Shown: positions 4,151 to 62,542 of the stretch, piece by piece
Layout of the letters: every line of letters begins with the position of its first letter
Position numbering within the stretch: position 1 is the stretch's first letter
Assembly (NCBI GenBank): GCA_947462335.1
Contig: OX381721.1
Span: 7,440,001 to 7,504,000 of the forward strand
Reading direction: 5' to 3'
Source: Harmothoe impar
Lineage: Eukaryota; Annelida; Polychaeta; Phyllodocida; Polynoidae
Length of the DNA: 64,000 nucleotides
Notes under the pieces: generated by a model
Seen by the model: only the letters and a program-made list of their open reading frames with translations
Told to the model about the DNA's origin: nothing
Databases searched by the model: none
Translations under genes and position numbers: made by a program

Positions 4151-7100
4151 TGCTTAGATGTTGACAGATTGTTTATGCCGGGATCTAACCAAGCAGCTGG
4201 TCTCACAGAGGAACAGTTCATCACATCTGCTCCTGTCCTACTCTTCTACATCCATGATGTCTCAAGGTCGTGTGCAGAGGTTGCTCAAGGTCAAACCCTC
4301 CAGGACCTGACAAACTGGTTTGTCAAGGGTGATGCACTCCCTGGCAGTGAGAACAGGACATTCAGGGCATGGGTGCAGGATGTGTTGGACAAAATTGAAA
4401 AGTCTTATGCAGCTGAATCTTCTACAAACAACGAGCAGGTGAATTTAAGAAACTTTATTTCCTCTCTGCTTTTCTCCTTTATTCCTCATCCATCCACCCA
4501 TCCATTATCCTTCTTCCGTTGTTGATGTTAAAACAACATGATAATTGTCCCAAGTTATAACATTATGGTGGCAATAGACCATATCTCTATTTGTGTATCA
4601 TATTAAAATACCCAGGTTGCCATACATGGTTATTGCATTAGGAAAGTATTAACAAATTATAGACATACATGTATCTATAAAATAGTAACATGTAGTATTA
4701 TAATCTTAATATCTTCTAAGACTGTATTGTGTACTTTAGTTTCTGTGATGGTATGTTGCAGTGTTTTGATGCTTATCGACTCCTGACAGCAGTTGGTGTC
4801 ACTACTGAGGCTGTTTCTTCATCCCAGGCCTCCCAGGTGGCAGCACTAACCCTTCTCTACATCTTGCAAGGTCAGTGCCACATCTACATGTGTTACCTTA
4901 CAAAGGAAGAATCATTAATACCTGAAGAAACTTCACAGAAAAATACAGAGGCAGAGTAAGCAGTAGTAATATTGGCCTAAAGCCTCGCGACCGGTCCATG
5001 GATCAAATAATGTGAAAGCTACAGTACCCTTCTAAAAGGGAAATTGTTTCAGGCCCCAAAGGGTGTTAACACTTCAAATGCCATGTAAATTATAATAATT
5101 TAAACTTGATGGAAATGTCATCATGTTCTTGAAGGGAAAACCATAGACACCCATTGCAGTGGCCTGCCCTATAAACAGGAGCTATTCATGGATCTTCTCA
5201 CACAGATCAATGTCAATGGTAATGAGCGGATCACAGTCAAAGGTTAGTGCCACCTTCAATCTTATTTAGGTAGTACATACCTTGTTCTACTGTATATTTG
5301 TTCAATATGTGAGGTCCAGATGCACTAAACTATCAACTACATGACCTACAGATACAACCTTTGTGCACTGATGGGGCAATATATAATTGGAAAAGATAGT
5401 TATTGGAAACCTGTGCATGATACATTGTAAATGCAATTGAATGCTGGATATGCAGCAGGCCAATGATTTAAGCTAGAGGAAAGACTCTTAACAAAAAGTC
5501 TTCCCACTGACAGACTGGCTTATGCCCGGAAAATAAAGACAAGGAGTCAGCGGCTGGCAGCGACCAGAGCCATTATCAATCCTTAGTGCAGACGTGTGAC
5601 AAATGTTGAGATGGGTATCCGATGGACCCTAAAAAAGGCAAACATATACAACATGTACATATTGTGCTTACAAATGAATGACCTTGCATTTTGAACTATC
5701 AATGGCCACCAGCTTCTGTTATCAAGTTTTTCATAATTGTCATGCTATTGCTTATACTAATGTTTCTTTATTCTATAGATATAGAAGCATTGCTCACAAA
5801 GCTGAATATAGGAGAGATGCAGAAGCCTCCTAGTGGGGTGACAGATGAGCACGGGGATGAGGAGGAGCAGCCTTCAGAACGTTACCGACGGGCCACAGGC
5901 ACCCCTACTCCTGTAGACATGGTATTTATCTTTTATAGAATATGGCTGTGACATTGATTTAACCAATTGAAGCTGCATGAACCAACCGCCGTATTTCACG
6001 GCCTGTGACATGATCCTCAAAAATGGCGGTTTGTTTACATTTGAACAGCCAAGAAATAGGCTATTTTAGGCTCCCCCTATCATAATTTTGGTATTTTGAA
6101 TAAAAAAAACCCCATAGAAATAAATGCGAAGGTCCCCTTTTGTTAGTCTGTTGGCTGGGTTATTTAACTTGTTGACCCTCATGAAATACGGCCTTCTGGA
6201 CGGTCCTAAAATGTTCAGTGTGGTATCACAAAACTCAGTGTCTAACTTCACCGTGCTTTATTGCAGGGTCTGTGTGCTTTATCAGTTTATTCCGGTGTCT
6301 GAGTGCTTGATCCAGTGTCTGAGTGCTTTATCACAGTGTCTGAGTGCTTTATCACAGTGTCTGAGTGCTTTATCACAGTGTCTGAGTGCTTTATCACAGT
6401 GTCTGAGTGCTTTATCACAGTGTCTGAGTTCTTTATCACAGTGTCTGAGTGCATTATTACAGTGTCTGAGTGCATTATTACAGTGTCTGAGTGCTTTATT
6501 ACAGTGTCTCAGTGTGACAGACTTGTTGGCCGTGTACAAGGTGAATGCCTCAGGTGGGCTGCACTCTGACATCCTGGAGGACCTGGCCCCTGCCCTCCTC
6601 CAGCAGCAGGTGTCTGGGGCCTGCCTGCCCAATCCAGGTTCCACAGACAAGGTTGCCCAACCCCCTACCACCGGGCAAGGTATGTTCTAGTGTATTACAT
6701 GTCATTCATATGGTAATAAAACAAGGCCCATTTCACATTCAAAAGATGTGTTATAGTGGCCATTTTCTTTATATATGGCATGTACACTTAGGTCCCTTTT
6801 CGCAAATAGTGTCACATATAATGGTCCCTCCTGGTCAGGGAATACAATATGTTCAAAGGGTTAAGCTTAAACCAAAAGAAAGTGACACTTGATGTGATAT
6901 CTTTGATGGTTATAATTATGAGTATAACAATTTGATGAAAACTTCATGTAACTTAAAACCTCGGCTGTAGGTCGAACTCACCTATTTTAAGTCGAATTTA
7001 GAGGGGAAAAATCGACATAATCATAGAAAAATGTTTTGAACTTTCAGAAAACCTCACATCTAAGTCGAATTTGAATTTGAGACTCCCAAAGGGTTAAGCT

Positions 7101-12063: not shown

Positions 12064-12789
12064 GGCTCAGTCTCATGAGTTTGTAACAGTTGAAACGTCT
12101 TTGACCGGGTGTCATCTTTGACTGGGTGTCGTCTTTGACCGGGTGTCGTCTTTGACCAGGGAGTTATAAGATGGAATAAATGAGGCATATATAGTGAGGA
12201 AATCGGTGAGATACTGCAATTATATGTTAATACACATTCATTGGAAACATTTTATATATTTATATACTGCACTTACTATGCACAGTGCAGTTGTTTAAGC
12301 TCAAAGTTATATATAAAGTGACATCTTTGACCGAGTAGAGTGAAATAATAGTACTATGCTGTACTATGCATAGTATGCTCAGTATATAAATATAACAAAA
12401 TTGACTAATGTTTGCTTTAAACGTGTATCAACATATGGGTGCACTATTTCCCCGCTTTTCTTACTACATCCCAATGGGCACAGAACATTGAATCAATGTT
12501 GATAAATGGTTGTCAATGTTGATTCAATGTTGATGCAATGTTGATTCAACGTTCAGGTAGATAGTGTGCCCACTGGGATAGACCTCATTTCTGCTATTCT
12601 AATGCTGCCTGGTCAAAGACGACACCCGGTCAAAGACGACACCGGGTCAAAGACGACACCCGGTCAAAGACGACACCCGGTCAAAGACGACACCCGGTCA
12701 AAGACGACACCCGGTCAAAGACGACACCCGGTCAAAGACGACACCCGGTCAAAGACGTTTCAACTGTTACAAACTCATGAGACTGAGCC
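12064..12789. mobile_element. GGCTCAG-ended MITE, copy 1, with nested insertion
   Basis: The terminal inverted repeats start GGCTCAGTCTCATGAGTTTG and run into a 17-bp tandem satellite (GTCAAAGACGACACCCG). There are four satellite units in the left arm and nine in the right. The interior matches the copies at 59357-59878 and 62004-62542. The extra length comes from a 112-bp element nested at 12468-12579. It has no ORF with coding features. The flanks TCAA and TCAT match only partly, so the target duplication is unclear. Confidence 0.8.
12468..12579. mobile_element. Nested short element with ATCCCANTGGGCACA ends
   Basis: The termini are ATCCCAATGGGCACA and TGTGCCCACTGGGAT. The interior has tandem TTGATTCAATG motifs. 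It interrupts the word CTTACTATATAAGCCTCATT, which is intact in the other two host MITE copies (near 59760 and 62408), so this insertion is the younger event. Confidence 0.75.
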
Positions 12790-28200: not shown

Positions 28201-31200
28201 ATATTTTAGATATTACTTGACATGGACCAAGTAGTGTACGTCTACATACTAAGTATTATAAATACTTAAGTTAATTTCAAACAATTCAGATAATTCTTTT
28301 CCTCATTCTGATATCAGTGTTTAGATGTGAACAGACTGTCCATGATGGGTGCTGCACCATCAGCTGGTCTCACAGAGGAACAGTTCATCACAGCTGCTCC
28401 TGTCCTACTCTTCCACATCCATGATGTCTCAAGGTCATGTGAAGAGGTTGTTCAAGGTCAAACTCCTCAGGACCTCACAAACTGGTTTGTCAAAGGTGAT
28501 GACTTCAATGGCAGCAAGGATAGGAGCTTCAGGGCATTGGTGCAGGAGGTTTTGGACAGAATTAAAAAGTCTTACATCCCTAAATCGTTAAGAGAAGGGG
28601 AGGAATCTGCAGACAATGACCAGGTCAATATCTCATAACTTTCTTGGAATTTGAGTATTTTAGTCCCAAATAGAGAGGATTTGTATACATAATGTTTCTT
28701 AGGCAATGTAAACTTGAATATTAATATGTGCATGCAGATATCATAATTGAACCCCATCCCACCCTATTTACCCTTTCAAATACGTGAATTATGTCAACAG
28801 TAATTGTGCTCAGGGTTTAGGTTGTCATCAAAAACTTTGTGGATGGCAATCTTTCCTGTTACAGCACATAGAAATGCAGAGCACAAATATCTTGTTTCAA
28901 AAGGCTGTATGGAACTGTTTTGCAGTGCTTTGACTCTTACCAACTCCTGACAGCGGTTGGCATCACTACTGAGGCTGCTACTTCAATCCAGGCCTCTCAG
29001 GTGGCAGCACTAACCCTTCTATACATGCTGCAAGGTTAGTGCCACATCTACATGTGTTACCTTACATGGGTCAAGGTCTGGTGAGTGTGCAATTATTGTT
29101 GATACATTCATGGGAAATCGGGGTCTCATGCAAGATGAAAGGCATATCCATGCCATGGCAATTAAGTTTGTATGTATCAAAATTATTGTCATTTTCCCAG
29201 ACCTAAACAGTGACAATGACGAGCAGTGACAATTTTGATGGATTTATCTAAACATGAAAAATTCTTTTGATTGAAATGGTAACTTTGAATAGTGCTCCTG
29301 CTAGCGTTCAAAGTAGCCTCGAATTTTAAGAAAAGAAAAGAAATCAATGGAGTGTCTGAATATTCCATAGAAATTCTTTAAAGAAAAGGATTATTTGTTG
29401 GTGTATTCCTCTTCCAATTAAGCAGGCTTAATGGATTAGTTAAGTGACACTTTACTTTGTACAGTGCAAAGTTGCAGGTAATGGCTAAATTCATTTTAGG
29501 GTGGCAGCCATCTTAGATTCACTGCTGAGCAGTCATATCAGGATATTCTTTTAAAAAGTGACATATTTTCATAAAGGTTATGTAGACAATAAAATGAAAT
29601 ACATAGCCAAGAACAATCATATATAATTATCTCACAAAGAAAAATGTGAACATAATATGATTTTATTTTTGTTGTATTCAAAGTAGCCCAGCTGTTGATT
29701 AGAGATTGGGAGAGAGGGTGAGAAAGTAATTAAGTAATGCTACCCTTTTCTTAAACAAACCTTTATAAAAACAACATTGATCATTCTTGCAGGGAGAAAT
29801 ATCAGTGCCCACTGCAGCAGTCTGCCATATAAAGAGGAGCTACTCACAAACCTGCTCACACAGATCGGTGTCCATGGTAATGAGCTGCTCACAGTCAAAG
29901 GTTAGTGCTGCATTCTGTCTTCTCTAGACATGAACATCTTCTATACTCACTCAATGCTTGATGCTCTTCCCCTTATGAGCAATTAATGGGAGAAGAGTTA
30001 AAGTCATAAATATAATAGATTTTGGTTATATTCACAGTAAGATGAGATATTGAAACTATAATCCCTCATTGGATTTTAGATCACACATTTTCTGAATTGA
30101 GCTGATCTGACCCTGTTTGACAGTAGGGCTATTGGAAACCTCTTTGTGTGATATGCATGGAATACCGGTCTCATGACATAAGCAAATAACATTTTGTGGA
30201 ACTGCAGCACTGGCCTGGTTGTAGAGTGTTCACCTCACTTTGGATTGCAGATTGGTAGTTTAAATACCAGCCAAGGCGAGCGAACAGGTCATTTACAAAG
30301 GTATACCTACTTCCAGTCTGCCTTGCATTCCACAATACGGACCAGTTTGGACCGTACCCTCAAAGCTTGGCACTCATGAACCCTGATATAATCTAAAATA
30401 GCTCTATTGGATATATTGTGCTTTACATAGTTGAATCAAAAAATGATATTGACTACCGGTAATTCTGGATTCTAAATAAAGCACAATATGTTATATGGAC
30501 TTGCGCTGGATTTAACCTGCCTATTTATTATAGTATATATTTGACTCGACACAAAGCCAATGAGAAAAAAAAAATTCCACAATATATAAATGACAATGTA
30601 AGTGAGCAGCGAGCTGTCCCACCTCTCCGGGCGGTAACCAACGTACACAAGCAACATAGCGACAGAACATAGGGGGCGCCCCTTACCGGGTAACATGGAT
30701 TGGCGCGCGCGAACAACCTCGCCAATAGTGGAGACAAGGGACTCGTATCCAACCAATGACTATGAGTAGTATAGTATGTATCGGAACGGGACTATAGTTA
30801 AGTACTGTTTATTACTCAATCGACCTGCAGCCAATCAGAAGCCTCCATTTGACCGGAAGTGACGTCACATGCCCATATAAGGGCATACCGGAAGTGACGT
30901 CACGTGACCTTGACCTAGTTAGAGGTCAAGGTCATGACTCAGCCAATCAGAGGCTTCCATTTTGACCGGAAGTGACGTCACACGCCCATATAAGGGCATA
31001 CCGGAAGTGACGGCATGTGACGTCACACGCCCATATAAGGGCATACCGGAAGTGACGGCATGTGACCTTCACATGTACATATAAGGGCATACCGGAAGTG
31101 ACGTCAAGTGACCTTGACTTAGTTAGAGGCTTCTGATTGGCTGGTACACCGGAAGTGACCCATTTATGCAAATGAGGGGCCTACTTCTGGTCAAATGGAG

Positions 31201-34200
31201 ACCTCTGATTGGTTGGGTCATGAAGAAATGTGTCTCTTAATTTAATTTTGTTTAGGAAGTGATCGATTTTAGGATCACGCGACCCGAAGTGACCTGATGA
31301 GTCACGTGACTAGAAGTGACGACGACACATGCCTTAATTAGACGATTCAGCAGCGACCGGAGGAAGTGTCACTTTAAGAGGACACGCTAGTTAATTGTTA
31401 TATTTGTTTTACTTACTAATAAAAGAAGACGTATGAAAATAAACACAACAATAATTTTATTTTATTTTTTTATTTTCTTTTTTTCAATTCTAATAACACT
31501 CTTTTTTTGAAAAGATGCGCTCAATCAATCAATAACACACTTTTTTTTCATATTTTAAAGGACTCGTTGTCACACCGTTAGAATGCACGCGACGCTTATA
31601 ATACAAGTAGCGCACGTCATCTTTCTCTATGGTGTAAGTGTCCATTTTTGGTTCGTACCACTTTTGAAATTTATATTTACTGCAAGGAGAGTTTTTCGTT
31701 TTCGAAAACATTTAAGAAGACGACTACTTCTGTACACTTTTTTTGAGATTTTCTTTCACCGGTGCCGCTGATTTGATCGTAGCAAATGTAAGTCTTAGGG
31801 TTGACACTTAGGATCCCGTCACCTTCTCACGCCGCTTTCTTTTCTTTCTGAAGTATGTCTCTCTCAGGCGAGGTTTGACTACACACAGGCAAACATCAGA
31901 GGCACACAATAGCGCTAATTCTACCTTCAGACAAAGGTCAGGCACTGCTGGACTATAATAGATGGGTCAAGGGCTATTCTAGTGAGGGTCAGGCTACGCC
32001 GGACATTCAATAAAAAGCTGGAGTTTGGCAAACTTGCTTTTGAAAGTCTGTCCATGCGGGATCCTCATGCCATAGTCTGGCAATGCTGAACTCTTGGGAG
32101 AGTATGCCGGACTCTTGCTGGCCAGACTTTCAAGCAAATTTGCCAAAGTCCAGCTTGTTATTGAATTTCCGGCGTAGCCTGACCCTCAGTAGAATAGGCC
32201 TTGACTCATCTATTATAGGTCAGCAGCGCCTGACCCTTGTATGAGAGTAGTATTGGCGACATTGGCCGACTCTGATATTTACCCGTGTGTACGGCGGGAG
32301 GAGGGGGTTCACAGCCACTGCTTGCGCTTATAGAGCGCTACTAGCGGAGGTCTGGATGAGGAGACTACGGCGTTTGTCTTTTGCTTGTGCAGCTGCTGCT
32401 GCTGCTGCTGACGATGTCACGGATGCCGCTGACAGATACTGCTGCTTGTGCTGCACGAGACTGAGTAGCCGCTATTACTAATGCTACTAATACTAGTATG
32501 AGAAAATACATTTAGTCAATTGATTAAATCAAGGAGGTTTTCTGACTTCAGTGGATCGTTTAGCCATCGGCCACGGGCAAAACTTGAAACCATTTTATAC
32601 ATGGGACAATTGGCAGAGTCGAAACGTGTTGGTACCATAGGGTCGATCATGTTCATCATCAGTTCAGGCAAAGGAAGTGTGTCGACAGCACGCGAAAACT
32701 TCATGTCTGAATGTTTCAACACAAGACTTTTTATCACACTCACACAGCTGCTTTGAAGAGTGAATCCTTGACCAAACTTGTGCTTTTCCAACACAGCTTT
32801 GGCCTCTTTCTGTGCAGTAAGGGATCTCTCTTTCGGGTTCATCTCAGTGCTGTCTAGCATGTCCTCAAAGTCTTTAACATAATGTTCCAACGGACTACAA
32901 ATGATGGACTCCAGATCATCGTCCGCATATGTCGTCTCCTCGCACCATATTGTGTCTTCGCCTGTTTCGAATTCCGTCATTTTCTTGACAATCTCCTCCT
33001 GAGTGCCTTGCATATATCGAAGCTCCTTCAAGGAGTTGATAACTTGTATGGCGAAGACTGACAAACTTGAAGGAATTTCACCACAGTCAGGCCAAGTATA
33101 CGGAGCTAAGAAAAATAGCTCTAACAAAATCTTCTCCCTCTGTCCAAATGAAACTACTGTTCCGATGAAGTTGAAGCATGCTTCTATCCATTGCTCCTTG
33201 GTGACATCCTTCCAATGTTTCTTTACCTCACATGCATCATAGGGCACCGTTTCTCTTCTTGCTTCAAGTGGGAGTTGCTTTTTCTTTCTTGGACTCATTT
33301 CGAGAGGGTTTCGATGCTCTGTAGCGTCAACACTTTCATAAATAAAGAAAATAGCAGAACTAACCATCGTAACGTGCTGAGCGAGCGTAGAGTGGACGAT
33401 GCTACGAAGATGAAGGGCGGGTGGAGAAAGTGTGACTGGTGACAGCGGCGTTTCACTCCTTATGTACCCTGTCCTAGATAAGCCTCTTAAACGGCTGAAA
33501 AGACTCTCTAAGTACAGAGCTTCTACCGCAGGTGGGTTTAGACTTAAGCAGCTTAGTTCACACACATGTCTGTTAGAAAAAGCTACTTGCACACGTGCCT
33601 TCCTTTTTTCACTAGTATTCACCCTCTGCCGACTTATAAGACACCTATACACTCTTTCTCGTGAAATCTATGGAAGATGATGGAAGGACCACTGACTACA
33701 TTTTCTTTGATCAGAGCGTGGAGGACGGCGTCGAACGGAGGGAACGTTGTGAACACGGCTTATAGGTTTTTTGGAAGAGGTCTTGTAAAGTCAAACTGGC
33801 GAGAGAGATGGCGTCTTTCAACATGACAATGCTGCTATGTTGGAAAAAAATAGCGTGATTTTTTCAAAAAAGATTCTATGAAAGATTTGACGTCTTCGTT
33901 GTTGTAGTGGATCAAGTAATCTGTCATAGTTTGCTTCTTCTTGTCATACTAAACTTTCTGACATGTGGCGTAGTCGGATTTCGGCCATTTTGACGCCCGT
34001 CAGTTCGCTGTCAAAAGTCGATCTCGGTGGCAGGGGTTTTTTGTTTACTAGTTTCTTGGTATACGTCATCCATTCGTAAGTAAAGCAACCTTTCTCTTCG
34101 TTTGTAGTGAAAGCTCGCAAATAATTCGCGTAGCTGTAACCAAGTGCTAAAAAAGTTGACTACTACGTCCAAGAAAACTGTGTGTAAACCGTCAACTATT

Positions 34201-35965
34201 GATTGCTTCTCTTTATGACGCTGAATTGTTGGTTTCTTCGGTCTCCGGAGGCAAATAACGAGTGAAGGCGTATTTTTTGATCAGGTTCAAGTCGTAACTC
34301 TCCGAGTTGAAGCGTACGACTGGAGCTTGACGGATGTATCTCAGAAGCCGCTTCTTCAGTTGAACTAACGGTTGTCTGGTGTGAGCTGCAGCGAAGCCGC
34401 CTGGAGAAGGGGTGAATGTCGCTTCCTCTAGCAGGAGAGCTTCACCTATCGCTACATGTAACTTCGCTAAGGTTGGTCGGTAAACTTCTAGCACAGCTTT
34501 CTCGATGACTTTGGCGTTCTCGTTTATGTGATTTTAAACTCGGTCTAACAAGGGGTCGGAATCTGCGTCGGATTCTCTGACGTACGCTGCCCCTCCTACC
34601 CCGGAAAGTCGTATGCGACGCTAGCCGACATCGCTGCATAGAGGGCAAAACTTAGGTATTGTTCTTCATTTTTCTACGGGTCACTCGTGATTGTACGGTC
34701 TTTTAAAAATTTTGAAACACTTTTCGCAAACGTCCTGCGGCATGTTTTTCTTTTTTTTGTTTTTTCACTTATTTACCAAATATTAAAAAAATAAACGTTG
34801 TTTATCACTTCGAATACTAGACGCCTCTTACCACACGATGCTATTAGCATAGTGAAAGACGTCTGTAGTGTAGGATCGATTTCAACAGATGTCCATCTTA
34901 CTGCAGGGATCAGACGAGAGTGGTCAACACTGGAGTGTCACAGCTCACTTTTATTTCTTTGGGTACAGCTGCATACAACCCTTGAACATACATTGCGACG
35001 TCGCCGCGTCCCATGTAGTCTTCCAACACTTTCATCAGAGCCATAGGCTCAGACGTCTCGTTGTACTTCCAAGCTTTCAGCACTTCATAGACAGGGTTCT
35101 TCACAGTCCTGTCAGAAGGCACAGGTTGAGAGATGGAAGCTACTTCATGAGAAGTCAACCCTAAGTAGATCCCTATGGTCTTCCAGCCTCTAGGGCAGAG
35201 CTCAGCTAAAAGAGAGAAATATTTCTGCACTTTCCACTCCATGTCTCCACTCTCTAAGCCATCCCACATGTCATGCTTGTCCATGTACTCACGTGAGAAT
35301 TTGATGAGGTCCATACGGTAAGATTCTTCCAAGGCGGCGGCTAGGTCCTTCCACCTACTAGTACAACTTTTCTGGTACCAAGTAGTGAACATTTCTCTAG
35401 CTTGAGTTATGACACTTGTCTCACAACTGAGATATCCCATATCCTTCAAGTTCACTTCAAGGAATGAACCTAACCGTATGTAATCTGATGTCGGCAACTT
35501 ACTACTTATTTTCAGTAGCATAGCGTCTGACAAGTATCCTAACGGCTCTGCTTTGAAGTATGATGATACAGGTACTACTGCAGCAGAACCAATAACAGGA
35601 GCAGCGTCTGCGCTGGTATCAGACGACTCGTTGTCGGAACAGGGCAACCACATGACTTCGTAAGGTATTGGTGAGGGCAGTCGCCACGGACCGGACGCAC
35701 TACCAGTGGAAATGAGGTCGAAAAACGGACTGTGCGCCCGTGACCCTTCGGGTTCCTCGTACGCCTCGTCGTCAGCGTCGTTCTCTGTTTCACCCTGTTG
35801 CTTTAGGACATGCATGTCTACTACGCGCTGCTGGGGCTGAGTGTCCGAATAGCTGTAAGTCTCAGCGCGAGCAGCGTTGATGGCGTCGGTTGATGAAGCG
35901 GTGGAGAGGTTCTGTGCAACGTGCTGCGTGTCAGTACTAGTAGCGGTAGTCGCAGCAAGAGGTGT

Positions 35966-36027
<62 letters not shown>

Positions 36028-39000
36028 GAGCAAGCGCAGCGCTAGCAGGTGCAGCAGTAGCAGGCGCAGCAGTAGCAGGCACAGCAGCAGCAGGCACAGC
36101 AGCCTCAGCAAACGCAGCAGTAACAAGCACAGCAGTAATAGGCGCGGCAGCAGCAGCAGCAGCAGCAGCAGGCACAGCAGTAACAGGCGCGGCAGCAGCA
36201 GCAGCAGCAGCAGCAGTAGCAGCAGCAGGCGCAGCAGTAGCAGCAGCAGCGTGCTCAGCAGCAACAACCGTCGCGAGTGTAACAACGTCGCTACTACGAC
36301 GACTACTACTACCACTACTACTGCTGTGTGCGCTCGCTACAGCGGGAGGGTGATAAGACCAAGCGGTTGCGGCGGTAGTCTCAATTTCAGTAGCAAGAGG
36401 AGATGCTGACAGTAAACGATCACCGTTCTGCGTATTCTTCTTGTTCTTGAACTCGATTAGATCCTTGGACGACAGTAGTTGTTGTGTTTTGCTCATGGTG
36501 GTGCCTGTAGAGAGCAGCAAAAGACTGAGTGAGTGAACGGATGTTTCCAGGCCCCTTATATACTCCTTCTCGCTTCTAGAGCTAAGCTACTTACAGCTCT
36601 CTTCAGCTGCCGCCGGCTGACCGGTGACTATTCACAAAGAGAAACAAAAAGTCATAAGGCATGACGTTTTCAGCTGGATCCCTTTCCCCCTCCCCTTTGA
36701 GAGATCGACTGACACGAGCTAAGCTACTTACTGCCTTGTTCAGCAATTCAACGTGCGTTAGCTGTATAAAGGATTAAGCAGTTGCTGACATTCTCAAAGA
36801 GAAACAAAAGACATAAGTCATGACGTTTTCAGCTGGATCTCTTTCCCCCCTCCCTCCTTTTTTTTTGAGAGATGGACTGCCATGAGCGGGCGGTGTACCG
36901 ACTGTACTAATTCAACGCGCATTAGCTGTATAAAGGATTAAGCAGTCATGAGCTTAGAGTGTGTATACAAAAAAACTACAGGAGGCGTGTAGTGTGAAGC
37001 AGGACCCCCTAAGACGGGAGTGTCTGTCTGTGAGTACAGTCGTGTGCATGTGGTGAGCGACTTAAGTGTAAAACAAAAAAAAATCACCGCCTCCTGCCGT
37101 GGTGAGTAGACTGGCCGGCGGCGGCCGGCTAGTTCAATAGGGGTGACAGCTGACTAAGGCTGTGCATGAAAATCCGATTTTCACCTGACCTCTGACGTTT
37201 GTTACAATGAATGCCAAAGGGGGAGAGAGTTGTCCTCAGGTAGGGGGTAGGAGGTAAGGCTAATGGATAAGGAAAAAAAACACCATTTTCAGCTGGCCAC
37301 CACAGATGGCGATGACATACCCCTCGTCATCTAAGCTCTTAAGAAGCTCTTACGGAGCGGAGCGGCTGCTGGACAGCTGGGGTGAGTAGACCGGCCGGCG
37401 GCGGCTAGCTAGTTCAATAGGCGTGACAGCTGACTAAGGCTGTGCATGAAAATCCGATTTTCACCTGACCTCTGACGTTTGTTACAATGAATGCTAAAGG
37501 GGGAGAGAGTCGTCCTCAGGTAGGGAGTAGGAGGTAAGGCTAATGGATAAAGAAAAAACACCATTTTCAGCTGGCCACCAAAGATGGTGATGACATCCCC
37601 CTCGTCATCTAAGCTCTTAAGAAGCTCTTACGGAGCGGAGCGGCTGCTGGACAGCTGGGGTGCTGTTGGAAATAGGATTAAACTCCCTCTGTATAAAAGC
37701 TCTGATTTCTGTTGGAAAAAAACCATATCACCTCTGACCACAGTAACGTCTACTACCACCACCACCAGCACCACCGCCGCGGCCACCGCCGCCGCCGCCG
37801 CCAGTCACAGCTGATCGCCTCATTAAAGCATGTGACGTCGTCGCTTCTAGTCACTTGCTTCATCAAGTCGCTTCCAGGCACGTGATCTTAAAGACCCTCA
37901 CTTCTTAAACAAAAAAAAAACGAAGAGACACGCTTCTTCCTCTCGAGAGGAAGAATGACGTATATAAGGAGGCTGACACGTGTATAGGCGCCTTATTAGT
38001 CGGCAAGGGGTAAATACTAGTGAAAAAGGAAGGCAGGTGTGCAGGTAGCTTTCTAACAGACACGTGTGTGCACTAAGCTGCTTAAGTCTAAACCCACCTG
38101 CAGTAGTCAAGTAGCATGTGAAAACTTACTTAACAGATCACTTAATTGAGTAGAGACTCTGTACTGAGAGAGTCTTTTCAGCTGTTTAAGAGGATTATCT
38201 AGGACAGGGTACATAAGGAGTGAAACGTCGCTCTCACCCATCACACTTTCTCGACTCGCCCTTCATCATCGTAGCATCGTCCACTCCACGCTCGCTCAGC
38301 ATGTTATGAGGGTTATTTCTACTTTTACAGCTTCTTTTCTTATCGAAGTGTCGACGCTACAGAGCATCGAAACTCTCCAAATGAGTCCAAGAAAGAAAAA
38401 GCAACTCCCACTAGAAGCAAGAAGAGAAACAGTGCCCTATGATGCATGTGAGGTAAAGAAACATTGGAAGGACGTCACCAAGGAGCAATGGATAGAAGCA
38501 TGCTTCAACTTCATCGGAACGGAAGTAGTTTCATTTGGACAGAGGGAGAAAATTTTGTTGGAGCTATTTTTCTTAGCTCCGTATAGTTGGCGTGACTGTA
38601 GTGGTGAAATTCCTTCAGGTTTTTCAGGGTTCGGCATACAAGTTATCTGGTCTTTGAAGGAGCTTCGATATATGCAACGCACTCACGAGGAGATTGTTCA
38701 GAAAATGACGGAATTCGAAACAGGAGAAGACACAATATGGTGCGAGGAGACGACATATGCGGACGATCATCTGGAGTACATCATTTGTAGCCCGTTGGAA
38801 CATTATGTTAAAGACTTTGAGGACATGCTAGCCAGCACTGCGATGACCCCGAAAGAGAGATCCCTTACTGCACAGAAGGAGGCCAAAGCTGTGTTGGAAA
38901 AGCTCAAGTTTGGTCAAGGATTCACTCTTCAAAGCAGCTGTGTGAGTGTGATAAAAAGTGTTGTGTTGAAACATCCGGACATGAAGTTTTCGCGTGCTGT

Positions 39001-39554
39001 CGACACACTTCCTTTGCCTGAACTGATGATGAACATGATCGACCCCATCGTACCAACATGTTTCGACTCTGCCAATTGCCCCATGTATAAAATGGTTTCA
39101 AGTTTTGCCTGTGGCCGATGGCTAAACGATCCACTGAAGTCAGAAAACCTCCTTGATTTAGTCGACTGACTAAATGTATTTTCTCATACTAGTATTAGTA
39201 GCATTAGTAATAGCGGCTACTCGGTCTCGTGCAGCACAAGCAGCAGCATCTGTCAGCAGCATCCGTGACATCGTCAGCAGCAGCAGCACGATCAGCACAA
39301 GCAGCAGCTGCTGCAGCAGCTGCACAAGCAGCACAAGCAGCAGCATCTGTCAGCAGCATCCGTGACATCGTCAGCAGCAGCAGCTGCACGAGTAGCACAA
39401 GCAGCAGCATCTGTCAACAGCATCCGTGACATCGTCAGCAACTGCAGCAGCTGCACGAGCAGCACAAGCAGCAGCAGCTGTCAGCAGCTGCAGCAGCTGC
39501 ACGAGCAGCACAAGCAGCAGCACCGACAGCAGCAGCAACAGCAAATCAGCAACA

Positions 39555-39597
<43 letters not shown>

Positions 39598-42500
39598 TGT
39601 GGACCGCTAAATTCGAGATGGTGACATACCTGTTTCTTAGAATCGACATTCGACATGAGGTCTAGTGACATTTGACATGAAGCTTGAAAAACATAGTGAC
39701 AGGTGACATGAGCAATTCTTAAAATCGACATGAGATATGAGCATAATTAAGCGACATCGACATGCGCCATGGCTATTTTTTATTTTTTTTGAAGACAACC
39801 GCCATAGCTTCCTTATTCAGACTTCCACTAGTAGTGCTCTATAAGCGCAAGCTTTGCCTTAAGAGAGCTGTGGCTGTGAACCCTCTCCTCTCTCCGTACA
39901 CACAGGTAAATATCAGAGTCAGCCAATGTCACCAATACTACTCTCATACAAGGGTCAGGCGCTGCTGGACTATAATAGATGGGTCAAGGCCTGTTCTACT
40001 GAGGGTCAGGCTAGGCCGGACATTCAATAACGGGCTGGACTTTGGCAAATTTGCTTGAAAGTCTAGCCAGCAAGAGATGCACATCATCATAAACGCAATC
40101 ATGATACCTTTCATTGTAAGTAGACTCGCCTCTCTGCCCTCTCTTTTAGAGAGGGCAGAGAAGCGAGTCTCACTCTTAAAAAACCCTGCCCCTCCCCCCC
40201 TCCCCCCCTCCCCCCCCATGCATCTTAAAGAGTGCCCCCCAGAGTGCCCCTCTCCCCCCCTCCTAGAAAAAAAGAGCCGCATTTTTAAATTATTTTTTAG
40301 CAAGCTTTTTCAGCTTGCTTTTTTTTTCTTTTTTTAAATTTATTTATCCATCAAAATCTCAAGTGACTTATTTTGAAAGCCAACCTAGTAGTCACGTGAC
40401 CCCCTTAAGTAGGTCACTTCCCGTCACGTGACCTATTTGAATTTCCCGCCAACATGGTGGTCACGTGACCCTCTTAAGTAGGTCACTTCCGGTCACGTGA
40501 CCTATTTGAATTTCCCGCCCAAAGGTCACGTGACCGGAAGTAGGTCACTTCCGGTCACGTGACCTATTTGAATTTCCCGCCAAAAGGGAGGCCTCTCATT
40601 GGCTGCTTTTGAATTTCCCGCCAAAAGGGAGGCCTCTGATTGGCTGCAGGTCGATTGAGTAATAAACAGTACTTAACTATAGTCCCGTTCCGATACATAC
40701 AATACTACTACTATGCTGCCTCCTCCTATCATAATCTTATTCTTCTAGACATACAGGAACTACTGAAGAAGCTGAATATAGGAGAGACACGGAAGTCGTC
40801 CAGTGGTACAACAGATGAGCATGGACACGAGAAACATGAGGAACATGGTCATGAGGAACATGGTCATGAGGAAGAACAGCCCCCAGAACGCAAACGGCGT
40901 GCCACAGCCACCACCACCACCAGTCCGATAGAAAAGGTATGTATTTTAAAGTTTTTAGTAGCAATAGCCATATACATGTCAAGGCTTGGACTTTGTATAT
41001 TTAGCGAGTGGACGATATTTTGCAGGGGAGGGGTTGGGGCTATGGTGGAATATCATACAAACCCACAGACACTTTTAGGCCCCTCCCCCTTGCATATGTG
41101 GTGAAATTACAGGCTAACTATCAGAACTCCTGTGTTGGTAGGTAGGTGCTCCAGTCAGTAGCAGATGATAATGTTTAGCACATTATTACAATAGTTTTGG
41201 GTTAACTATTTATAGTGTGCCATTTCACGGATAAAAGACTCTAATCCAGTGTCTAACCTTCAAGCTCTTTTATCACAGTGTCTGAGTGCTTTATTCCAGT
41301 GTCTGAGTGCTTTATCACAGTGTCTGAGTGCTCAATCACAGTGTCTGAGTGCATTATCACAGTGTCTAAGTGCTTTATTTCAGTGTCTGAGTGCGACAGA
41401 CTTGTTGGCCGTGTACAGGGTGAATGCCTCAGGTGGGCTACCCTCTGACATCCTGGAGGACCTGGCCCCTGCCCTCCTCCAGCAGCAGGTGTCTGGGGCC
41501 TGTGTGCCAAATCCAGCTTCCAAAGCCACAGACCAGGCTGACAAACACCCTGCCACCCTACAAGGTATTTTGTGGTTCCCTTCATTTCAAGTTAAGGATA
41601 AAAGGAGTGTTTCTAATTGCATTAGCATAGCATTACTCTTGGATTGTTGCATTGAATGTAAAATGAAAAAGATATTTAAATACAGGTATGGAATGATCTC
41701 CACCTTACAGTCATTACATTGGTTTGACAGTGGGATCTCTCATATCATTATTATATTACTGTGTTTATCTTAGAATTTTCTGTTTATTTTTGTGTCTCTG
41801 GCTATAAGGTAATCTCTGTATTATTTCTATATCTTTACTGTGTTCATTTCCAGTAAAGGACGTCTGTGGGATCTCTGTGTTAAACATTTTTGTGTTTACT
41901 TTCAGTATACAGCTACGGTGTGCTCTCTGTGCTCGTCATATCCCTGTGCAGCTTCTTTGGGGTGGTGCTCGTGCCATGTGCAGGGACTAGGTTCTACAGA
42001 GAGGTTGTGGCTGTATTCATAGGGCTGGCGGTAGGCTCCCTGGTAGGGGATTCAGTGTTCCACCTTCTCCCAGCGGTAAGGCTATAGCATATGCTTTTTC
42101 TGTATCAATGACACAGTGTTTTGCATCATGTAAAGCCCACCTACAACCTCAGCGTAATGTTCCAGTGATGGTTGTCCCTTTGCATGCAACACGTTCCTAC
42201 CACTATGGGAATCATTCAATATCAACCCAGGTAGGCGTATGACATCAGGTTTAATATTGGATAGGCTACACACCTTACAGAATTTTAAGAACTTTCCTAT
42301 GTCACTATTGTCCTCTCTCAATTAGCTGTTCAGCAAGAGTAGATAGTGATTGCAAATTAAGAAGACCATTGGAACTAATGATCTCATTTTGATATTTAAT
42401 GTGTAGTTTCCCTTGCAACTGACTTCTTTCTTTCTCTCTGTATGCCACTGATTATGCATACATGTTTGTTATATCCACAGGCCTTTGGAGTTCATGGACA

Positions 42501-59356: not shown

Positions 59357-59878
59357 GGCTCAGTCTCATGAGTTTGTAACTATTGAAACGTCTTTGACCG
59401 GGTGTAGTCTTTGACCGGGTGTAGTCTTTGACCAGGCAGCATGAGAATAGCAGAAATGAGAATGACATTCATGCTGATACTAATAGCAAGAAAAGTGTGG
59501 AAATAATGCACCCATATATTGATACATGTTTATAGCAAACCTAAGTCAATTTTGTTATATTTATATACTAAGCATACTATGTTAAGTACAGCATAGTATT
59601 ATTATTTCCCTCTGCTCGGTCAAAGACGTCACTTTATATATAACTTTGAGTCTGAACAGCTGCACTGTGCATAGTAAGTGCAGTATATAAATATATGACA
59701 TTTTACTTATGTTTCCAATGAATGTGTATTAACATATTATTGCACTATTTCACCGATTTCCTTACTATATAAGCCTCATTTATTCCATCTTATCACTCCC
59801 TGGTCAAAGACTACACCCGGTCAAAGACTACACCAGGTCAAAGACGTTTCAGCTGTTACAAACTCATGAGACTGAGCC
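59357..59878. mobile_element. GGCTCAG-ended MITE, copy 2
   Basis: It is 522 bp with GGCTCAGTCTCATGAGTTTG at one end and its inverse at the other. The 17-bp GTCTTTGACCGGGTGTA satellite has two to three units per arm. CTAA directly abuts both ends, giving a 4-bp target duplication. Confidence 0.85.
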
Positions 59879-62003: not shown

Positions 62004-62542
62004 GGCTCAGTCCCATGAGTTTGTAACAATTGAAACGTCTTTGACCGGGTGTCGTCTTTGACCAGTGTCATCTTTGACCGGGTGTCATCTTTGACCAGGC
62101 AGCATTAAAATGGCAGAAATAAGGCCTATGTAATAGGAAAAGCGGGGAAATAGTACACCCATATATTGATACACGTTTTTAGAAAACATAAGTGAATTTT
62201 GTTATATTCATATACTGACCATACTATGCATAATAGAACATTATATTATTATTTTCCTCTGCCCGGTAAGAGATGTCACTTTATAAATAACTTTGAGTTT
62301 AAATAGCTGTACTGTGCATAGTAAGTGCCGTATATAAATATATAAAATGTTACTTATGTTTCCAATGAATGTGTATAAACATATTATTGCAGTATTTCAA
62401 CGATTTCCTTACTATATAAGCCTCATTTATTCCATCTTATAACTCCCTGGTCAAAGACGACACCCGGTCAAAGACGACACCTGGTCAAAGACGACACCCG
62501 GTCAAAGACGTTTCAACTGTTACAAACTCATGAGACTGAGAC
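62004..62542. mobile_element. GGCTCAG-ended MITE, copy 3
   Basis: It is 539 bp with the same ends and interior as copies 1 and 2. ATAA directly abuts both ends, again a 4-bp target duplication. Satellite units number three to four per arm. Confidence 0.85.

What the first reader, a model, noticed from the sequence alone, without database searches (positions are those of the whole stretch)
30759..40715. Young-looking Polinton derivative carrying signalling cargo but no structural genes
The termini match (about 82 bp, about two mismatches) and the 6-bp target duplication is perfect, so the insertion seems recent. Yet the only Polinton core gene left is a dead polymerase. Three other genes are intact: two copies of an unknown 260-codon protein and a tandem death-domain protein. 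A mobile element keeping host-interaction cargo while losing capsid, integrase and ATPase would be a trans-mobilised or domesticated satellite of a virus-like element.
Basis: partly seen in the sequence, partly recalled or inferred. Interest (0 to 1): 0.88.

Follow-up and report, generated by a model that had tools for sequence, protein, structure and literature searches.

The report
Satellite of a split Polinton
The window holds one of thousands of very young, roughly 10-kilobase virus-like mobile units in an animal genome; this one lacks a capsid gene, an integrase and a working polymerase, and it seems to be moved by relatives whose Polinton genes are divided between two separately inserting units.

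Summary
In detail: a 9,945-bp Polinton-type unit (30765-40709) with ~86-bp terminal repeats, perfect 6-bp target duplications, two related 260/262-codon genes, a tandem death-domain gene and a broken pPolB. All 19 other copies compared (unit A; 0.10-0.67% diverged from the window) carry the same dead polymerase, mostly with open cargo frames, so A spread in trans after losing it. The same terminal repeats bound three other unit types: B (~9.5 kb) with an intact 1379-codon pPolB but no integrase or capsid gene; C (~10.3-10.6 kb) with integrase, ATPase, protease and a putative capsid gene but no polymerase; D (~9.4 kb), without long reading frames. Tested B (10 of 10) and C (8 of 9) copies are discrete units with perfect target duplications. 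A 34-base terminal sequence occurs 9,113 times (~4,500 units); of 42 neighbouring end pairs sampled, 40 enclose 8.9-10.5 kb and none ~20 kb. Best reading: a split (bipartite) Polinton with size-matched satellites, A being one that carries death-domain cargo. Separate packaging as virus segments is inferred. A rare single-unit helper is not excluded.

The parts
30759..30764 (.). left 6-bp target site duplication ACTATG
   Evidence: sequence
30765..30850 (+). left terminal inverted repeat (AGTAGTATAGTATG...)
   Evidence: 97% complementary to 40624-40709; shared with units B, C and D
30848..31240 (.). left terminal arm with tandem repeats rich in ETS-, CRE-, CArG- and E-box-like sites
   Evidence: 30765-31400: 7 ETS, 5 CRE and 3 CArG sites against ~0 expected; site names recalled
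31553..31838 (-). remnant of the pPolB C-terminus in two pieces (31553-31648, 31740-31838)
   Evidence: matches to pol residues 1347-1378 and 1274-1306 of unit B
32112..33652 (-). left copy of an internal inverted duplication (partner 37980-40076) that carries the 260-codon gene
   Evidence: arms 81-96% complementary in blocks
32516..33298 (-). open 260-codon gene, family without a Pfam match
   Evidence: open in 17 of 19 copies
33655..34743 (-). broken pPolB remnant (N-terminal zinc-finger-like start and exonuclease region), five pieces in three frames
   Evidence: present in 19 of 19 copies, shortened in 4 of them
34910..36496 (-). open 528-codon gene: Ala-rich N-terminus related to B's PC4-like protein, C-terminal tandem death domains
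   Evidence: runs to its C-terminus in 17 of 19 copies
37980..40076 (+). right copy of the internal inverted duplication
38381..39169 (+). open 262-codon gene, paralogue of the 260-codon gene (91% identical)
40379..40647 (.). right terminal arm with 69- and 41-bp repeats containing GGTCACGTGACC
40624..40709 (-). right terminal inverted repeat
40710..40715 (.). right 6-bp target site duplication ACTATG
   Evidence: sequence

Best explanation
The window element (A) is a non-autonomous satellite of a Polinton family whose core genes are split between two independently integrating units with the same terminal repeats. B carries the protein-primed polymerase (plus a PC4-like protein and a tandem death-domain protein). 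C carries the integrase, packaging ATPase, adenain-type protease and putative capsid proteins. Shown: the units, their shared termini, their separate target duplications, their youth and abundance, and that A carries a dead polymerase in every copy compared. Inferred: B's polymerase starts DNA synthesis at the shared ends of all units, C's integrase inserts the copies with a 6-bp stagger, and C's capsid packages them, which would explain why even the unit without long reading frames keeps ~9.4 kb. A arose from a B-like unit by loss of most of the polymerase, in-frame fusion of the PC4-protein N-terminus to tandem death domains, and gain of an inverted pair of 260/262-codon genes. Its cargo probably blunts host cell-death signalling, while the terminal arms act as enhancers or replication origins; both are inferred.
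For: 19 of 19 A copies compared carry the polymerase remnant and differ from the window by 0.10-0.67%. B: intact 1379-aa pPolB in C19:66457542-66467044, ends with GTGGTA on both sides. C: C19:66430794-66450718, GACGTC on both sides, interrupted by D (TTTCCG on both sides), with rve integrase, Peptidase_C5, IVa2/A32-like ATPase. C proteins have no match in A or B, and the polymerase none in C. End test: from polymerase positions 10 of 10 units end where predicted, 9,481-9,515 bp, each with a perfect 6-bp duplication; from integrase positions 8 of 9, 10,320-10,582 bp. D: 4 of 6. 9,113 exact terminal 34-mers, control 0; 40 of the 42 neighbouring +/- pairs in the first 100 listed span 8.8-10.7 kb against 0.69 expected for random placement, and none ~20 kb. 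Of 11 unit midpoints probed, 3 match B, 4 A, 2 C, 1 D and 1 none. A-B kinship.
Against: No unit with all core genes was found, but the sample is 42 end pairs (16 of the 100 ends stayed unpaired) and the gene lists are capped at the best matches. The capsid protein is identified only through homologues, one of them named F54H12.2-like; it has no Pfam match, and a profile search of solved structures gave no capsid, only ribonuclease A chains (engineered tandem forms to E 3e-5, others 0.006 or weaker) and a ribosomal protein, which I take as chance. No expression, replication or particle data. Both structure predictions were poor, so the cargo's function is not supported by structure. Synonymous and non-synonymous counts among young copies do not show selection. 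Five of 18 units tested... see full report: 1 of 9 C copies and 2 of 6 D copies did not show both ends.
Confidence: 0.76

Rival explanations
1. A complete single-unit Polinton with the same termini exists at low copy number, on contigs not held, or only as a free virus, and A, B, C and D are all deletion-derived satellites of it that keep different gene sets.
For: B and C gene sets are complementary, as two deletion products of one parent would be, and 9.5 + 10.5 kb add up to a usual Polinton length. Lists are best-first and capped; contigs C9, C16 and C17 give no hit in any list I read and are probably not held.
Against: Plain defective satellites are not expected to keep a whole polymerase (34 of 34 scored places without a stop) or integrase (141 of 141), though both lists favour intact copies. 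10 of 10 polymerase and 8 of 9 integrase copies lie in ~10-kb units. No ~20-kb pair among 42; the single 15.9-kb pair gave no match to polymerase or C proteins in 9 short probes.
Confidence: 0.19
2. A is a domesticated host gene cassette that keeps Polinton ends by descent.
For: Cargo frames are open and resemble host-signalling domains.
Against: At least 20 near-identical dispersed copies with their own target duplications; at least 146 places with the 262-codon gene.
Confidence: 0.03
3. The separation of polymerase and integrase is an assembly artefact.
For: Very young repeats are hard to assemble.
Against: Each tested unit has matching 6-bp duplications at its own two ends, different at most sites, which misjoins would not produce.
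Confidence: 0.02

Closest known systems
Polintons / Mavericks (class Polintoviricetes)
   Same: pPolB, rve-type integrase with a chromo-like domain, adenain-type protease, packaging ATPase, putative capsid protein, terminal inverted repeats starting AGT, 6-bp duplications.
   Different: Usually one unit of 15-25 kb (PMC6431247, passages); here the genes lie on two ~10-kb units, with size-matched satellites.
Bidnaviridae (Bombyx mori bidensovirus)
   Same: Two linear genome segments with inverted terminal repeats and a polymerase derived from Polintons (PMC4061559, passages).
   Different: Bidnaviruses are ssDNA, 6.5 and 6 kb, with a parvovirus-like capsid and no integrase reported in the passages seen; here units are integrated, ~10 kb, with Polinton-type morphogenesis genes.
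Non-autonomous DNA transposons moved in trans
   Same: A and D share the ends of a coding partner but lack its enzymes.
   Different: A carries three open genes, and all types keep nearly the same length, unlike short MITE-type derivatives (comparison from general knowledge).
Polinton-like viruses and virophages
   Same: Small dsDNA elements with related morphogenesis genes (PMC11071308, passages).
   Different: PLVs mostly lack pPolB and rve integrase (same passages); here both exist but on different units.

Membership tests
[quoted passage not shown]
   On unit B: 1379-aa frame, PF03175 30 bits over the 25.8 cut-off; broken in the window unit.
Polinton/Maverick | retrovirus-like (rve) integrase | tested here: met
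   On unit C: PF00665 51.3 bits over the 32.6 cut-off; absent from A and B.
Polinton/Maverick | adenovirus-like cysteine protease and packaging ATPase | tested here: met
   On unit C: PF00770 21.9 bits over 21.3; Adeno_IVa2 24.3 over 21, Pox_A32 20.6 under 22.8. Absent from A and B.
Polinton/Maverick | major and minor capsid proteins | tested here: inconclusive
   434-aa frame on C has 75 homologues, one named F54H12.2-like, a label I recall for Polinton capsid proteins. No Pfam match and no capsid in the PDB. The 235-aa candidate minor protein was not identified.
Polinton/Maverick | terminal inverted repeats and 6-bp target duplications (6 bp recalled) | tested here: met
   Window; A 9 of 10, B 10 of 10, C 8 of 9, D 4 of 6 tested copies.
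Polinton/Maverick | core genes together on one unit of about 15-25 kb | tested here: not met
   B 9,481-9,515 bp and C 10,320-10,582 bp; no ~20-kb pair among 42. Hence filed as a variant, not an ordinary member.
Bidnaviridae | two segments with inverted terminal repeats and Polinton-type PolB | tested here: met
   Two unit types with common ends, polymerase on one.
Bidnaviridae | parvovirus-like capsid and superfamily 3 helicase | tested here: not met
   No such Pfam match in the B and C frames scanned; capsid relatives are of another kind.
Segmented virus | segments packaged in particles | not testable with these tools
   Only uniform unit size points to it.
Trans-mobilised satellite (the window unit) | multiplied after loss of its own enzymes | tested here: met
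   Polymerase remnant in 19 of 19 copies, integrase absent, duplications intact.

The most novel reading that the evidence does not exclude
An integrating animal virus of Polinton descent with a truly segmented dsDNA genome: a replication segment (B) and a morphogenesis/integration segment (C) packaged in separate ~10-kb particles, accompanied by at least two satellites (A with death-domain cargo, D without long reading frames) whose length is held near the capsid's capacity.
Probability: 0.45. Interest if true: 0.94.

Novelty: new variant of a known kind. Interest (0 to 1): 0.87.

Why it matters
If Polintons can split their genome, the usual picture of them as self-contained 15-25-kb units is incomplete, and the origin of segmented DNA viruses such as bidnaviruses gains a plausible living intermediate. 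The genome holds about 4,500 young units, roughly 44 Mb or 3% of the 1.51 Gb held (arithmetic), so replication, packaging and satellite parasitism of a Polinton could be studied in a living animal. The satellite with death-domain cargo adds a case of a parasite of a parasite carrying likely host-interaction genes.

Tried and rejected
Homologues: the death-domain region found no homologue (736 candidates). The 262-codon protein found 7. Three scans of viral contigs (262-codon alignment, capsid candidate, integrase) found no relative. Structure predictions for the 262-codon family (mean pLDDT 41, all helices) and the death-domain region (36) were too weak for a fold search, so none was run. Solved-structure searches gave nothing useful.

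Literature: no paper holds both 'polinton' and 'death domain'. Searches for segmented, multipartite or bipartite Polintons listed 15, 15 and 12 of 124, 25 and 441 papers; none of those listed reports a split Polinton as far as title and start of abstract tell. Only open-licence papers are held. I saw passages, not whole texts, of PMC6431247, PMC2836005, PMC4061559 and PMC11071308.

Not done: the Pfam polymerase census (PF03175), the capsid census, the B-end censuses and the death-domain census did not complete. The empty-site search with joined flanks was prepared but not sent. The host species was not identified. Selection: paralogues dN 0.041, dS 0.109; young copies uninformative.

Dropped rows: L015 was left out because nested units interrupt it; the poly-alanine stretch was left out; blast pieces under 95.5% identity were left out.
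Full report
1. Check of the observation. The element runs from 30765 to 40709 with ACTATG on both sides, ~86-bp terminal inverted repeats at 97%, and begins AGTAGTAT. It holds a 260-codon gene (-), a 528-codon gene (-) with two death-domain matches (whole protein 39.9 bits over a 22.6 cut-off; split pieces 20.2 and 27.1 bits) and a 262-codon gene (+). The 260- and 262-codon genes sit in an internal inverted duplication (32112-33652 and 37980-40076), dN 0.041 and dS 0.109. The polymerase remnant is broken in three frames. The insertion lies ~33 bp upstream of an inferred splice acceptor (AG at 40747-40748) of a ZIP-type zinc transporter gene.

2. Copies of this unit (A). The genome searched is 1.51 Gb in 736 contigs, with the window at C21:7440001-7504000. 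The left 482 bp matches 40 of 40 scored places at 99-100%. I fetched 20 copies. One (L015) is interrupted by nested units and was left out of the counts; the other 19 differ from the window by 0.10-0.67%. All 19 carry the polymerase remnant; three share a ~620-bp loss within it and a fourth has its own loss. Frames: 260-codon gene open in 17 of 19; death-domain gene running to its C-terminus in 17 of 19; 262-codon gene open in 15 of the 16 copies in which the fetched stretch held the whole gene. Genome-wide, 140 of 146 scored places of the 262-codon protein have no stop (2603 candidates, best first, so biased to intact copies). In 9 of 10 copies with both ends and flanks held, the 6-bp duplications are perfect; L009 is the exception. 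So A multiplied without a polymerase of its own. Among copies, 16 synonymous, 26 non-synonymous and 3 stop changes outside the poly-alanine stretch do not differ clearly from the neutral mix, about 26-29% synonymous expected.

3. The relatives with the same ends. L015 and its neighbours on C19 hold a nest of units. B lies at C19:66457542-66467044 (GTGGTA on both sides). It has a 1379-codon polymerase frame without stops (motif-like DANSLYL, NATYGK and DTDS visible; motif names recalled), a 534-codon protein with a sub-threshold PC4 match (21.9 against 25 bits) and a 249-codon tandem death-domain protein. C lies at C19:66430794-66450718 (GACGTC on both sides), interrupted by D (C19:66434512-66443922, TTTCCG on both sides); without D it would be about 10.5 kb by arithmetic. 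C carries rve integrase, a chromo-like piece (22.1 against 25.1 bits), Peptidase_C5 protease, an IVa2/A32-like ATPase and a 434-codon putative major capsid protein, plus 379-, 110-, 141- and ~235-codon frames. The capsid candidate has 75 homologues, one named F54H12.2-like; its profile found no capsid in the PDB, only ribonuclease A chains (best E 3e-5 for engineered tandem forms) and a ribosomal protein, taken as chance. D has no ATG frame above 104 codons.

4. Are B and C really separate? Eight C proteins gave no match in A or B, and the polymerase gave none in the C pieces. Polymerase: 34 of 34 scored places are ~100% identical and stop-free (7585 candidates). Integrase: 141 of 141 scored places are 96-100% identical and stop-free (7716 candidates). 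Both lists are capped and favour intact copies. From the C19 layout I predicted where the ends of other copies should lie and fetched only short windows there. For 10 of 10 polymerase copies, terminal repeats lay at both predicted places, 9,481-9,515 bp apart, with perfect 6-bp duplications. For integrase copies this held in 8 of 9, 10,320-10,582 bp; the ninth showed only one end in the window fetched. For D, 4 of 6 had both ends (9,401-9,416 bp) with perfect duplications, one had one end and one neither.

5. A less biased look. An exact 34-base terminal sequence occurs 4,539 times forward and 4,574 times reverse, with 0 for the reversed control. Only the first 100 places are listed, all on the first 5.7 Mb of C1. 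They form 42 +/- neighbour pairs with 16 ends left over; 40 of 42 span 8.8-10.7 kb (8,934-10,537 bp), against a mean of 0.69 (maximum 5) in 2,000 random placements; the other two span 6,961 and 15,926 bp. I probed the midpoints of 11 of the 42 pairs, chosen to cover the length classes: 3 match B, 4 A, 2 C, 1 D and 1 none, with length and type in agreement. In the 15.9-kb interval, 6 of 9 short probes match nothing held, 3 match only repeat-like or terminal parts, and none matches polymerase or C proteins.

6. Origin of A. A's 528-codon protein shares its N-terminal region with B's PC4-like protein (E 5e-28) and its C-terminal tandem death domains with B's 249-codon protein (25% identity, E 4e-8). 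A keeps the start, the exonuclease region and the end of the polymerase gene at the places where B has them. So A is a derivative of a B-like unit. The 260/262-codon family has no match in the B, C and D pieces searched and 7 homologues elsewhere at 47-96% identity.

7. Terminal arms. A's left 636 bp holds 7 ETS-, 5 CRE- and 3 CArG-type sites, and the right 350 bp holds 4 copies of GGTCACGTGACC, with about 0 expected in first-order shuffles (palindromes were counted on both strands and are halved here). A's interior has none of the ETS, CRE or E-box forms and one CArG form. B's ends are rich in ETS, CRE and E-box forms, while C's have E-box forms but no ETS or CRE. That these act as enhancers or replication origins is inferred.

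8. Mechanism. Shown: shared ends, separate duplications, complementary gene sets, youth, number, uniform size. Inferred: the polymerase from B copies every unit from its ends; the integrase from C inserts them; the capsid from C packages them, and its capacity holds all types near 10 kb, including D, which has no long frame to preserve. The death-domain proteins of A and B would interfere with host cell-death or immune signalling. A low-copy single-unit helper remains possible (0.19).

9. Comparison. The gene set is that of Polintons (PMC11071308 and PMC6431247, passages), but the one-unit feature was tested and not met, so I file it as a new variant. Bidnaviruses are the nearest precedent for two segments with a Polinton-type polymerase (PMC4061559, passages), but they differ in capsid and helicase. 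My paper searches showed no report of a split Polinton in the listings seen; subscription papers are not held.

Noticed in passing
window 5768-6686 and 40737-41700: Two related exon groups of ZIP-type zinc transporter genes in tandem; the element sits ~33 bp upstream of an inferred splice acceptor of the second.
   Followed up: partly
window 12096-12757, 59390-59845, 62038-62510: Three ~450-660-bp stretches bounded by 17-bp tandem repeats in opposite orientation (GTCTTTGACCGGGTGT.. and ..GGTCAAAGACGACACCC), possibly another mobile element.
   Followed up: no
G000:C1:1-5720000: 100 of the 9,113 terminal 34-mers lie in this 5.7 Mb, about 17.7 per Mb against 6.0 for the genome, which may mean enrichment near chromosome ends.
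   Followed up: no
G000:C1:1709449-1719169: A 9,721-bp unit whose midpoint matches none of A-D (locus L099): perhaps a fifth type.
   Followed up: no
G000:C1:4267525-4283450: A 15.9-kb interval between terminal repeats; most short probes are unlike A-D (loci L085-L093).
   Followed up: partly
L030 6392-7529: In this C copy the integrase and the chromo-like part are in separate frames, whereas most scored copies have one 399-codon frame.
   Followed up: no
window 35200-35300: The window copy differs from all 19 other copies at residue 437 of the death-domain protein.
   Followed up: no
contigs C9, C16, C17 of G000: No hit in any list I read; contig sizes suggest these contigs are not held.
   Followed up: no
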